NCBI GenBank assembly: GCA_902554355.1 | Contig: CACDOC010000011.1 | Location: 1 to 34,950 of the forward strand | DNA from: an uncultured SAR86 cluster bacterium | GTDB lineage: Bacteria; Pseudomonadota; Gammaproteobacteria; Magnimaribacterales; Magnimaribacteraceae | Length of the DNA: 34,950 bases | Direction of reading: 5' to 3' | Shown: positions 29,478 to 34,950 of the stretch, in pieces | How the letters are laid out: each line of letters opens with the position of its first letter | Numbering within the stretch: position 1 is the first letter of the stretch | The notes under the pieces: model-generated | The model's input: the letters and a program-made list of their open reading frames with translations, nothing else | The model's database searches: none | What the model was told of the DNA's origin: nothing | Position numbers and translations under genes: made by a program

Positions 29478-29988
29478 ATGATCCCTTTAATTATGAGATA
29501 CCTTTTAGTAATACTTCTTCTAGTTTCTCCTTTTATAACAGCCAACGAAAAGGAAGCAGGTGAATGTGTAGACATTAAAGACCCTGTATTAAGACTTTCC
29601 TGTTACGACTCTTTATTTAAAAGTGAACCAATTGAAGAACCTAAATTGAATACGCCTCAGAAAAAAAAAAGAAGTAATTGCTACGAATAAAGAAAAAGAT
29701 AAAGAAATTAAGAAAGAAAGAGAAAGAAGGTTTGGTCTTCCTAAAAGAGAGGAAAAAAAAGAAGAAAAGATCGAAATAAAGGATAAAATTTCTAAAGTAA
29801 CCCAACTAACCAGCTTAAGACTAGATATTACTTTGGATAACGATCAAAAGTGGAGAAGCGTAGAAAAAATAAGACAAATAAGATTAAAACCGGGTCAAGA
29901 GGTTACTATCTCAGAAGGATTTATAAGTGGCTATGTTTTGAAAGTAGTCGGTAAAAAAATATCAATTAGAGTCAGGAGGATTAAATAA
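29478..29988 (+). pseudogene. Small exported protein with 'RLxCYD' motif, split by a frameshift in an A10 run
   Basis: The first segment (29478-29690, 70 aa) has a signal peptide ending near 'ITA-NE', then 'ECVDIKDPVLRLSCYDSLF'. This Cys...RL-x-CYD pattern is seen in exported proteobacterial proteins of unclear function. It stops soon after ten consecutive A bases (29661-29670). Removing one A joins it to a frame open to 29988 that encodes a charged linker and a beta-rich tail: 'LRLDITLDNDQKWRSVE', 'LKPGQEVTI' and 'ISIRVRRIK'. That tail is the ending normally found in such proteins, so the intact product would be about 170 residues. The downstream part has no start of its own. It may be a real mutation, an assembly error, or a gene rescued by slippage on the A-run. 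Its last codons contain the AGGAGG site of the next gene. The in-frame ATG at 29493 is an alternative start. Confidence 0.75.
29661..29670 (+). other. A10 homopolymer at the frameshift point
   Basis: Ten consecutive A bases. The upstream frame and the downstream coding frame differ by exactly one base here, so nine A would restore a continuous gene. Confidence 0.85.
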
Positions 29989-29990
29989 AA

Positions 29991-32000
29991 ATGAAGAATA
30001 TTATAGTTATTTCTACAGTTATCTTATTGTCAACTTTCTTAAGTGCACAGGAAATCAATCAGAACGTAAAGAATTTTTCACAGCTTCCGGATGTTTATAG
30101 CATTAAGGTTTCACCAAACGGCAAGATGATTGGTGTTCTTAGAGAAATCGATCAAGAAAGAATGGTGTCAATCATAGAGCTTGAGTCGAAGAAAATGTTG
30201 CATACGCACAGATTTATAAGGAAGTATCAGATTCAAAGTTTCGAATGGCTTAGTGATGAAAGGTTGCTGTTTTCTAGATCGGCTAAGTTTTCTGGTGAAA
30301 ATAGGAGTTTTTCTTCAGGAGAATTGTATGCAACAAATATAGATGGTAAAAAATCAATCATGCTTACAGGACCACAGGCCAAGAAATCTAGTGACACAAC
30401 AAAGGATGATCCAAGACAAAGGGCATTTATGATTGATGAATTAGAAGATGATCCAGATCATATATTGATTCAGTTTTTTACATCTGATCTATTCTTCAAA
30501 CTCTATAAATTAAATACAAATAATGGCGAAATGGAAAGATATGCAACGCCGCCAGTTAGACAACCACAGTATGTTTTTGATGTAAAAGGTAATTTAATGG
30601 CCGTTGCTGGTATAGACCCTAAAACCTATGATGTAGAGATTTATATTTACAATAAGAACCTTCCCGTCGAATATTTTTCTAGATCTGCATGTTCTGGGCA
30701 GAGTGTTGATTGCGTGGAAGCTGTAGTAAAAAAGACATCTAAAATAAAAAATGAGGACTGGACCTTTTGGAAATCTGTTGCTTGGGATGAGGAACTGAGA
30801 GTAATTTCTTATGACGAAGAGAGCAATAGTTTAATAACTGTAGAGAATGGTGAACAAGATTTATCTGCCATTTTCAAAACTAATTTAAAAACTGGTGACA
30901 GAAGATTAGTTTATAAGCACGATACAGTAGATATAGGAGAAGTTCTGGTAGATGAAGAGGGAGCCGTTTTCGGTACAACCTTGATGGATGGTTACCTAAG
31001 CTGGGTTTTTTTTAAAGGAGAGAATAAAGAAAAAGATAGAATAAAAGAAATTGGTGCTAAATTCCCTGGAAGCAACATAAGTATACTTTCAATAAGCGAT
31101 AAAGAGGATAAGTTTACGTTTACTGTCTCTTCAGATGTCAACCCGGGTATACATTTCTTATTTGATCTAAATTCAGCAGAACTAACACCTCTTGGTAAAT
31201 TTTGGGGAAGTATAGATGAATCAAAATTATCCTACATGGAACCAATATCTTTTAATGCTCAAGACGGCACGACTATTCATGGTTATTTAACTAAAAGTGC
31301 AAAAGGCAATTCTAAAAATTCTCCAACTATAGTTCATCCTCATGGAGGACCTGAAGCTAGAGATCGTTGGGGGTTTAGTCCTAGAGTACAAATGCTCTCT
31401 TCTGAAGGCTTTAATGTTTTGCAAATAAACTTTAGAGGATCGTCTGGATATGGAAAGTCACATCAAAGATTCATTTATGGTAATTGGGATGGAGTCTTGA
31501 ATGATATATTTGATGGAATGGTTTATTTAGATGAACAGGGTTTAATTGACATAAATAGAGCTTGTATTTATGGCGGAAGTTATGGAGGCTATGCTGCTAC
31601 ACAAGCACCCATCATGAGACCCGATCTCTTCAAATGCGCTGTTAGTGATGTCGGCGTGTATGATGTTGGAGGTTTATTTGAAGAAGGCGATATGCAGCGC
31701 GCAAGAGGCGGAAAGGAAATGTTGAAGATAAGGGTAGGGGATGATGAAGAAAGACATATAGAAATGTCCCCACATTACAATGCTGAAAAACTTACTGTGC
31801 CTTTTTTTATGCTCCATGGTGAAAATGATATAAGAGCTCCTTATGTGCATGCAGTAGCTTTTTCAAAGAAACTAAATCGATTAGGTATAAAGCATAAAGC
31901 TACTTTTGTAGAGAACGAAGGTCATGGATATTTTGATGAAGATGTTAGGTATGAGACCAATATGGAGCTTCTTGATTTCTTTAATGAACATCTTAATTAG
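29991..32000 (+). CDS. Secreted prolyl-oligopeptidase-family (S9) peptidase
   Basis: A 669-residue serine peptidase of the S9 (prolyl oligopeptidase / acylaminoacyl peptidase) type. An N-terminal signal peptide (about 1-19, ending L-S-A) sends it to the periplasm. Residues from about 25 to 400 form a WD/beta-propeller-like region beginning 'LPDVYSIKVSPNGKMIGVLR'. The C-terminal alpha/beta-hydrolase domain has 'HPHGGPEARDRWGF', nucleophile Ser530 in YGGSYGGYA, Asp613 in 'HGENDIRAP' and His645 in 'NEGHGYFD', so the triad is complete. AGGAGG lies 11 bases upstream. Five bases separate it from an oligopeptide-binding lipoprotein gene, suggesting that peptides are trimmed outside the inner membrane and then imported. 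Confidence 0.93.
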   Translation: MKNIIVISTVILLSTFLSAQEINQNVKNFSQLPDVYSIKVSPNGKMIGVLREIDQERMVSIIELESKKMLHTHRFIRKYQIQSFEWLSDERLLFSRSAKFSGENRSFSSGELYATNIDGKKSIMLTGPQAKKSSDTTKDDPRQRAFMIDELEDDPDHILIQFFTSDLFFKLYKLNTNNGEMERYATPPVRQPQYVFDVKGNLMAVAGIDPKTYDVEIYIYNKNLPVEYFSRSACSGQSVDCVEAVVKKTSKIKNEDWTFWKSVAWDEELRVISYDEESNSLITVENGEQDLSAIFKTNLKTGDRRLVYKHDTVDIGEVLVDEEGAVFGTTLMDGYLSWVFFKGENKEKDRIKEIGAKFPGSNISILSISDKEDKFTFTVSSDVNPGIHFLFDLNSAELTPLGKFWGSIDESKLSYMEPISFNAQDGTTIHGYLTKSAKGNSKNSPTIVHPHGGPEARDRWGFSPRVQMLSSEGFNVLQINFRGSSGYGKSHQRFIYGNWDGVLNDIFDGMVYLDEQGLIDINRACIYGGSYGGYAATQAPIMRPDLFKCAVSDVGVYDVGGLFEEGDMQRARGGKEMLKIRVGDDEERHIEMSPHYNAEKLTVPFFMLHGENDIRAPYVHAVAFSKKLNRLGIKHKATFVENEGHGYFDEDVRYETNMELLDFFNEHLN

Positions 32001-32005
32001 GCCTT

Positions 32006-33607
32006 ATGAAGTATAAATTTCTTTTTATTTTATTCTCTGTATTCCTAGTAGGAAGTTGTGGAGAAAACGTTCCTCCTGTTGAGTCTTCTTATGAGACTAA
32101 GATTCTTTATTTGGGGAATGGAACAGAACCAAAAGACTTAGATCCGCATACTGTAACTGGCGTTCCTGAAAGCAAGATACTAATGGCTTTAATTGAAGGT
32201 CTTGTAATTAGGCACCCGGACGGCTTGGAACCACTTCCAGGAGTAGCTAAAAGCTGGGACATCTCTTCTGATGGAAAAGAGTATGTTTTTTATTTAAGGG
32301 ATGCTGTTTGGTCTAATGGAGATCCAGTTACTGCTAATGATTTTGTGTATTCCTGGAACAGGATGCTTATGCCTTCATTGGGTTCACAATACCCTGATAT
32401 GCTTTATGACGTAGTTAATGCTGAAAATTTTAATAAAGGACTAATAGATGATTTTAGTTTAGTTGGGGTTAAAGCTATTGATGCTAAGACTTTAAAAGTG
32501 AATTTAAGAAATCCTGCACCCTATTTTGTTGAGCTTTTAGCTCACTACACTACTAGACCTGTGCATAAACCCACTATAGAAAAGTTTGGTGAGATGGACT
32601 CAATGGGGAATCAATGGACTAGGCCAGGTAATTTTGTTGGCAACGGCCCCTTTACTCTTGAAGATTGGAAATTAAATCAGGTTATAAGGGTTAAGAAAAG
32701 CCCAACTTATTGGGATGCTGATAGAGTTAAATTAAATGAGATACATTTCCTTCCGATTGACAATCCTACAAGGGAAGATTTTATGTTCAGATCAGGAAGA
32801 ATTCATGTGACAAGTACTGTTCCAACAGAAAAGATAGAAGTGTATCGAGAACAATACCCTGACCAAATAACTATTACGCCTTATTACGGCACATATTATT
32901 ATAGGATCAATATAAATAAGAAGCCTTTAGATAATAAATTGGTGAGGCAAGCGCTTTCACTTTCCATGGATAGAGAAAAGATAACAGATAAGGTAGCCAA
33001 AGGTGGTCAAATACCAGCTTTTTCATTTACACCTCCTGATCCTAATTCTTACTTTCCACCTACAGCCCTAGAATATAACCCTGAAGCAGCAAAAACTTTA
33101 TTGGAGAAGGCATGATATACTCCTGAAAACCTTCCAGCCATAGAGCTCTTGTATAACACGAGTGAGGGTCACCAGAAGATAGCAGAAGCGATGCAACAGA
33201 TGTGGAAGGAGAATTTGGGTATAAATATTGTATTAACTAACACTGACTGGAAAGTTTATCTATCGAGACAAAATACTGGTGACTATGAAATAGCTCGTGC
33301 AGGTTGGATTGGTGACTATCAAGACCCTAAATCCTTTTTAGATATGATGGTTACTGGAAGGGGTAATAATCAAACAGGTTGGTCTAATGAAGAATACGAT
33401 AATTTATTAATAAAGGCTGCAAACTCTACCTCTCAAAGTGAAAGATTCATGCATATGTACGAAGCTGAAAAGATTCTAATGGACGAGCTCCCAATTATCC
33501 CCATATATACCTATACAAGGATATTTATGAAACATGAAAGTGTTAAAGGCTGGAATCCTAATTTATTAGACTCTCATGCCTATCAATATATTTCCATCGA
33601 AGAATAA
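32006..33607 (+). pseudogene. oppA: Oligopeptide ABC transporter substrate-binding lipoprotein (OppA/DppA family), interrupted by an in-frame TGA
   Basis: A family-5 extracellular solute-binding protein. The lipoprotein signal ends in LVGS-C18, followed by 'LYLGNGTEPKDLDPH', 'IEGLVIRHPDGLEPLPGVAKSW' and 'VTANDFVYSWNRML', and later 'PLDNKLVRQALSLSMDREKI'. The first part (32006-33112, 369 aa) ends at TGA 33113-33115. The same frame then continues without shift to 33607 with 'YTPENLPAIELLYNTSEGHQKIAEAMQQ' (broken here as YTPENLP / AIELLYNTSEG / HQKIAEAMQQ) and 'DWKVYLSRQNTGDYEIARAGW', the normal family ending. E. coli OppA reads E-A-G-Y-T at this point, so the TGA replaces a Gly codon, explicable by one G-to-T change. 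Without it the protein would have 533 residues (OppA 543). It could be a nonsense mutation, a base-call error, or readthrough. Confidence 0.85.
33113..33115 (+). other. In-frame TGA at a Gly position of oppA
   Basis: TGA occupies codon 370, in the context GCA-TGA-TAT. Homologous reading frame continues on both sides with no shift, and GGA (Gly) is the expected codon. Confidence 0.85.
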
Positions 33608-33616
33608 GACGCTTTT

Positions 33617-34534
33617 ATGCTTAACTTGATATTAAGAAGAATAGGTATAGCTATACCTGTTCTCCTAACTGTTATTACATTAACCTTTTTAATGGTTCAC
33701 TCTGCTCCTGGAGGACCTTTTGATGAGGAGAAAGCAGTATCTGCTGAAGTTTTAGCCAAACTTAATGAACGTTATAACTTAGACCAGCCTCTTTCAGTGC
33801 AATATTTTGATTATCTCTCAGGAGTATTAGTAGGAGATTTTGGACCATCATTTAGATATCCAGGAAGATCTGTAACTGAGTTAATTTCTATTGGTTTACC
33901 AATTACTTTTGAACTTGCGCTTTATTCAATTATCTTTGCGTTATGTGTAGGCGTTTTCGCTGGAGTATTGGGCGCCCTTAGGCCTAATACAGCTCTAGAT
34001 TACATTCCTATGAGTACTGCAATGATAGGTATCTGTGTTCCTTCTATTATTTTAGGACCCACTTTAATTCTTGTTTTTGGTATATGGCTTGAGTTAGTCC
34101 CAGTATCGGGGTGGGGTTATATGCCAGGAGACAAAATACTACCAACAATTACCTTAGGAACTGCTTACGCTGCCTATTGTGCTCGATTGACAAGGGGCGG
34201 CATGCTGGAGATCTTAAATCAAGATTTTATTAGAACTGCAAGGGCAAAAGGTTTATCAGAAACGAGAGTGGTAGTTGTCCATGCTCTTCGAGGAGGTCTT
34301 ACGCCTGTAATTGCATTCTTAGGACCTGCCATGGCTGGCTTGTTAGCCGGTTCTTTTGTAGTTGAAACCATATTTGGTATTCCCGGCTTAGGTAGATTTT
34401 ATGTTGAGGCTGCTTTTAACAGGGATTACACAATGATTCTTGGTTCTTCTATATTCTTTTCATTCTTAATAGTTTCCTTCAATTTACTTTCTGATCTTGT
34501 AGCCGCAGCCCTTAATCCTAAATTGAGAGATTAG
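33617..34534 (+). CDS. oppB: Oligopeptide ABC transporter permease (OppB/DppB family)
   Basis: A 305-residue inner-membrane permease (E. coli OppB 306). It starts with the family's 'ILRRIGIAIPVLLTVITLTFLMVH' first membrane helix and the 'APGGPFDEEK' periplasmic segment. 'LNERYNLDQPLSVQYFDYLSG' comes next. About six membrane helices can be drawn. The cytoplasmic EAA loop 'EILNQDFIRTARAKGLSETRV' couples to the ATPase subunits, and 'ETIFGIPGLGRFYVEAAFNRDY' is the conserved C-terminal part. It pairs with OppC to form the channel. It lies 9 bases after the interrupted oppA and is intact, so the transporter may still be under selection. Confidence 0.96.
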   Translation: MLNLILRRIGIAIPVLLTVITLTFLMVHSAPGGPFDEEKAVSAEVLAKLNERYNLDQPLSVQYFDYLSGVLVGDFGPSFRYPGRSVTELISIGLPITFELALYSIIFALCVGVFAGVLGALRPNTALDYIPMSTAMIGICVPSIILGPTLILVFGIWLELVPVSGWGYMPGDKILPTITLGTAYAAYCARLTRGGMLEILNQDFIRTARAKGLSETRVVVVHALRGGLTPVIAFLGPAMAGLLAGSFVVETIFGIPGLGRFYVEAAFNRDYTMILGSSIFFSFLIVSFNLLSDLVAAALNPKLRD

Positions 34535-34535
34535 A

Positions 34536-34950
34536 ATGAGGAACAGTTTGTGGAGAGATGCATCTTTGTTTGGTTCTATCTACATTTTATTAATAATTGT
34601 CTTGGCTCTAATCACGCCATTAATAGCACCCTATGATTATGCTTATCAAAATCTTGATTTGGGCCCTTCTGCGCCTTCGACTATACATTTGCTTGGAACA
34701 GATACCTTACGCCGTGATTTATTAACAAGAATGATGTATGGAAGTAGAGTTTCTTTAATGGTTGGTTTTTTAGCTACCGCAGTTGCTTTAACCATTGGAG
34801 TTTTATGGGGAACCATTGCAGGCTTTTCAGGAGGAAAAGTTGATACGATTATGATGAGAATAGTAGATGTCCTTTACGGCATACCTTTCATAATCTTTGT
34901 AATTCTTCTAATGGTCATTTTTGGTAGAAATTTAATTTTATTGTTTATGG
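34536..34950 (+). CDS. oppC: Oligopeptide ABC transporter permease (OppC/DppC family), N-terminal part (cut by window end)
   Basis: This open frame starts one base after the oppB stop and runs off the window with 138 codons. The protein has a short cytoplasmic N-terminus, a first membrane helix ('IYILLIIVLALITPLIAPYDY'), then 'HLLGTDTLRRDLLTRMMYGSRVSLMVG', the OppC-family segment that usually reads G-T-D-x-x-G-R-D. Here the Gly is Arg (codon CGC). Further helices follow ('ATAVALTIGVLWGTIAGFSGG') up to 'IPFIIFVILLMVIFG'. With oppB it would form the peptide channel. The ATPase genes oppD/oppF are expected beyond the window. Confidence 0.93.
   Translation, partial: MRNSLWRDASLFGSIYILLIIVLALITPLIAPYDYAYQNLDLGPSAPSTIHLLGTDTLRRDLLTRMMYGSRVSLMVGFLATAVALTIGVLWGTIAGFSGGKVDTIMMRIVDVLYGIPFIIFVILLMVIFGRNLILLFM

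What the first reader, a model, noticed from the sequence alone, without database searches (positions are those of the whole stretch)
32006..33607. oppA interrupted by TGA at a conserved glycine, with both halves otherwise intact
The frame continues without shift through TGA 33113-33115, and homologues have Gly (E-A-G-Y-T). One base change (GGA to TGA) explains it. The rest of the gene and oppB show no decay, so it is very recent, an error, or read through. Without the C-terminal third, the protein could not form a full binding cleft.
Basis: seen in the sequence. Interest (0 to 1): 0.5.

Follow-up and report, generated by a model that had tools for sequence, protein, structure and literature searches.

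The report
Peptide-import gene with stray stop
In one marine SAR86-type genome, the gene for the peptide-catching part of a nutrient importer is cut short by a single stop codon that no examined relative carries; it is most likely a very young loss or a sequence error, so an ordinary thing.

Summary
An in-frame TGA (33113-33115) splits one oppA-type frame (32006-33607); both halves match the same family model in register. The 23 other family genomes with a match (of 34 searched) show no stop in the matched stretch. The four congeners that reach this codon have glycine there. TGA normally ends genes here (3 of 27). Constraint is the same on both sides of the stop (dN/dS 0.032 and 0.032), so the stop is far younger than the split from the nearest relative, or is an error. 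Read-through has no positive support: no tRNA-Sec or SelB over cut-off and no TCA-anticodon tRNA in the 384 kb scanned. These are two of three mid-gene lesions among 194 compared genes. Best reading: a very recent nonsense change disabling the only SBP_bac_5 protein found in this roughly half-complete assembly. A consensus error cannot be excluded without reads. Low interest.

The parts
32006..33115 (+). 5' part of the oppA-type gene, 369 aa then TGA; lipoprotein-like N-terminus (Cys18, by eye)
   Evidence: PF00496 7.5e-75
33113..33115 (+). in-frame TGA at a conserved glycine codon
33116..33607 (+). 3' part of the oppA-type gene, 163 open codons then TAA
   Evidence: PF00496 9.2e-17; NF011684 1.3e-34; dN/dS 0.032 against G004
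33617..34534 (+). oppB-type permease, intact
   Evidence: PF00528 8e-35; NF007008 3.4e-97; dN/dS 0.010
34536..34950 (+). open frame running off the contig end, by position oppC (not searched)
   Evidence: sequence, read by eye; contig C11 is 34950 bases long
29991..32000 (+). S9-family peptidase, intact, directly upstream of oppA
   Evidence: PF00326 6e-42; dN/dS 0.084
29478..29988 (+). small predicted secreted gene, frameshifted near a run of ten A (29661-29670); open in G003, G004 and G005
   Evidence: weak VasI-like match of the G004 copy, below cut-off

Best explanation
A very recent nonsense change in a SAR86-type oppA. Shown: one in-frame TGA stands where relatives have a glycine codon, all relatives whose copy reaches this place are intact, and the sequence after the stop carries no sign of relaxed constraint. 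Inferred: the change is real DNA of the sequenced cell or population (a young or rare loss-of-function allele). Translation would stop after 369 codons and leave a periplasmic protein without its last 31%. The downstream piece has no signal sequence of its own, so the peptide-binding subunit would not work and the permease would have no captor, since no other SBP_bac_5 protein is found in this assembly.
For: Single frame with one stop. 23 of 23 other matched family genomes have no stop in the matched stretch; 20 of those 23 matches reach query residue 444 or beyond, the other three end before the site. Glycine codon in 4 of 4 congeners that reach it. dN/dS 0.032 before and 0.032 after the stop. 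By codon, 2 replacement and 19 silent differences after it against 10 and 83 before it; only 1 replacement after it is assigned to the window's lineage. The published error rate of single-cell assemblies, 5e-6 per base (PMC4053759, section read), would give about 0.28 nonsense errors in 1.17 Mb and 0.0004 in this gene, if G000 is such an assembly, which is not known. One SBP_bac_5 place in G000.
Against: No reads, no second genome of the same species, no population data. The second lesion, an indel in the only A/T run of ten or more in the 384 kb sample, lies 3.45 kb away, and both lie in the last 5.3 kb of the contig, where assemblies are often weakest (general knowledge). Two of the three mid-gene lesions in 194 compared genes fall here; clustering this tight has a chance of about 6% under random placement.
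Confidence: 0.58

Rival explanations
1. Consensus error: an amplification, sequencing or assembly error near the end of the contig, the gene being intact in the cell.
For: Both lesions lie within 5.3 kb of the contig end and the neighbouring one is a homopolymer indel, a classic error type. Every relative that reaches the site is intact and selection looks unbroken.
Against: If errors were frequent here, replacement changes should be in excess; only 17 nonsynonymous changes separate the window's oppA from G004 (14 before, 3 after the stop). Benchmarked error rates of single-cell assemblies are low, though that figure counts SNPs, not indels, and G000's type is unknown.
Confidence: 0.35
2. Read-through or recoding: the UGA is translated often enough to keep the protein whole.
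For: Open and constrained frame after the stop; only SBP_bac_5 gene found in the assembly.
Against: No relative carries the stop. TGA ends 3 of 27 window genes. Best tRNA-Sec match 44.9 bits against a cut-off of 47, and no SelB match over cut-off, in 6 of 6 genus genomes. No TCA-anticodon tRNA among those found in 384 kb of G000, which is only a third of the assembly. The conserved residue is glycine, not cysteine. Equal constraint is also expected if the stop is simply young.
Confidence: 0.05
3. Stable split gene: two pieces made separately that assemble into one working protein.
For: Both halves are constrained.
Against: The downstream ORF's first start is TTG 33149, 11 codons into the 3' part, with no signal sequence (by eye), while the 5' part carries the lipoprotein-like signal; no relative has a split.
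Confidence: 0.02

Closest known systems
OppA / SBP_bac_5 (PF00496) peptide-binding proteins, e.g. PDB 2z23
   Same: Near whole-length match of the read-through protein (2z23: residues 21-515, E 2.2e-118) and linkage to oppB.
   Different: Interrupted by TGA; its best NCBIfam score, 295.6 bits for the 5' part, is under the curated cut-off of 947.
   Same: 98% identical protein and same neighbours along 8.3 kb at 93% DNA identity.
   Different: No stop, and the upstream small gene is open.
Homopolymer frameshifts of Blochmannia (PMC3017870, passages read)
   Same: The neighbouring gene's frameshift is at a long A run in an otherwise little changed A+T-rich gene, a setting where transcriptional slippage may restore the frame.
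   Different: Concerns the neighbour, not oppA; no transcript evidence here.

Membership tests
OppA-type substrate-binding protein (SBP_bac_5) | Match to PF00496 over its cut-off | tested here: met
   252.8 and 61.6 bits for the two parts, cut-off 32.4
OppA-type substrate-binding protein (SBP_bac_5) | One uninterrupted reading frame | tested here: not met
   TGA at codon 370
OppA-type substrate-binding protein (SBP_bac_5) | Gene next to its permease genes | tested here: met
   oppB-type permease at 33617-34534
OppA-type substrate-binding protein (SBP_bac_5) | Binds peptides | not testable with these tools
   needs expression and binding assay
Recent pseudogene (nonsense allele) | Lesion absent from relatives | tested here: met
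Recent pseudogene (nonsense allele) | Lesion present in the cell's DNA | not testable with these tools
   no reads held
Selenoprotein / UGA recoding | Sec tRNA and SelB present | tested here: not met
   none over cut-off in 6 of 6 genomes; G000 is about 51% complete, its congeners 66-82%

The most novel reading that the evidence does not exclude
The cell tolerates both lesions because its decoding is loose: the UGA is read through and the ten-A frameshift is mended by transcriptional slippage, so that two neighbouring genes are kept at reduced output.
Probability: 0.03. Interest if true: 0.5.

Novelty: new member of a known kind. Interest (0 to 1): 0.1.

Why it matters
If real, it is a snapshot of a streamlined ocean bacterium losing its only detected peptide-binding protein, useful as a marker of strain-level loss of peptide uptake. 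If an error, it matters only as a caution for gene calling. Neither would surprise a specialist.

Tried and rejected
Alternative code (TGA = Gly): rejected because TGA ends 3 of 27 window genes, the relatives use a glycine codon at the site, and oppA is the only compared gene with a mid-gene in-frame stop in the 384 kb sample. Selenocysteine: rejected. Gradual decay of the 3' part: rejected by dN/dS and lineage counts. A generally error-ridden assembly: not supported; of 194 G004 genes matched in the G000 sample, 3 show mid-gene lesions (oppA; the 29478-29988 gene; a C-terminal frame change in a 790-residue gene on C6), and of 188 in the other direction 2 do. From those counts I dropped rows whose stop lies within about 20 residues of a start or 4 of an end: 6 rows in the first direction and 6 in the second, plus the start stops of one gene that is still counted for its frame change. 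An earlier, less filtered pass gave 104 and 101 matched ORFs, among them apparently antisense ORFs. No match in the phage collection. Paper searches for a SAR86 pseudogene, premature stop or oligopeptide transporter listed nothing on this gene; only listings were seen, apart from passages of PMC4053759 (its section 10 in full), PMC3017870 and PMC11582366.

Full report
What is there. The frame 32006-33607 encodes an OppA-type solute-binding protein and carries one internal stop, TGA at 33113-33115. The two parts match PF00496 and the OppA model in consecutive, non-overlapping ranges, so there is no shift or large loss of sequence. Downstream are an intact oppB-type permease and a frame running off the contig end; upstream is an intact S9 peptidase. 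The window is the whole contig C11 of an assembly of 1,172,876 bases in 61 contigs, estimated 51% complete. Its nearest named relatives carry titles of SAR86 cluster bacteria.

Relatives. In the genus, 6 of 6 genomes including G000 hold the gene; the other five have no stop in the matched stretch. Four of them reach the site and have a glycine codon (GGA in three, GGG in one); G001's copy is cut short by its contig before it. In the family, 24 of 35 genomes match at E 1e-80 or better and only G000 has a stop; of the other 23, three matches (G001, G023, G030) end before the site. The 11 misses were not examined further.

Age. Against G004, dN/dS is 0.032 for the 369 codons before the stop and 0.032 for the 163 after it, with oppB at 0.010 and the S9 gene at 0.084. 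By codon, replacement to silent differences are 10 to 83 before and 2 to 19 after; with the other congeners as outgroups one replacement after the stop falls on the window's lineage. Had the 3' part been free of selection since the split, dozens of replacements would be expected (inference from a dS of 0.237 and 395 nonsynonymous sites). The stop is therefore very young, or not real, or bypassed.

A second lesion. The gene between the TonB receptor and the S9 peptidase (29478-29988), open in G003, G004 and G005, changes frame in the window near a run of ten A at 29661-29670. flags a TAA in the G003 match; the translation shows that it precedes a later start, and the rest is open. This is the only A or T run of ten or more in 384 kb. 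In that sample 194 G004 genes have a counterpart at 75% identity or more, and 3 have a mid-gene lesion in G000; in the other direction it is 2 of 188 (rows near gene ends dropped, see Tried and rejected). Two of the three lie within 3.5 kb at the end of this contig; three random places give such closeness about 6% of the time. This weakly favours either a local quality problem or local relaxation of selection on this gene group, and does not decide between them.

Read-through. TGA is a normal terminator here (3 of 27 window genes). No tRNA-Sec or SelB reaches its cut-off in 6 of 6 genomes; the sub-threshold tRNA-Sec hits are probably ordinary tRNAs, since one of them (C3:4302) is called tRNA-Ser by ARAGORN. 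No tRNA with anticodon TCA appears among those found in 384 kb, but the assembly is incomplete and only a third of it was scanned for that.

Real or error. A published benchmark gives 5e-6 wrong bases per base for single-cell assemblies (PMC4053759). Applied here, about 6 errors and 0.28 nonsense errors per 1.17 Mb would be expected, so one such error would not be remarkable, yet a real young null allele is at least as plausible (judgement). Whether G000 is a single-cell or a metagenome assembly is unknown to me. I put 0.58 on a real recent nonsense change, 0.35 on an error and 0.05 on read-through.

Consequence if real. The truncated product lacks the last 164 of 533 residues. Solved OppA-type proteins align with this stretch (2z23 to query residue 515), and in that fold it is part of the folded body (general knowledge), so the truncated protein would hardly bind peptides. 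Only one SBP_bac_5 place is found in G000 and one in each congener, so there is no spare in the parts assembled.

Noticed in passing
29478-29988: Small predicted secreted gene with a frameshift near a ten-A run, open in three congeners; the G004 copy has a weak, sub-cut-off match to VasI. Slippage rescue is possible but untested.
   Followed up: partly
29991-34534: Silent divergence from G004 varies sharply along the contig (dS 0.105 in the S9 gene, 0.512 and 0.237 in the two parts of oppA, 0.534 in oppB), suggesting a recombination mosaic.
   Followed up: no
L102, about 1498-1722 (G000 C6): A 790-residue G004 gene continues in another frame for its last 75 residues in G000.
   Followed up: no
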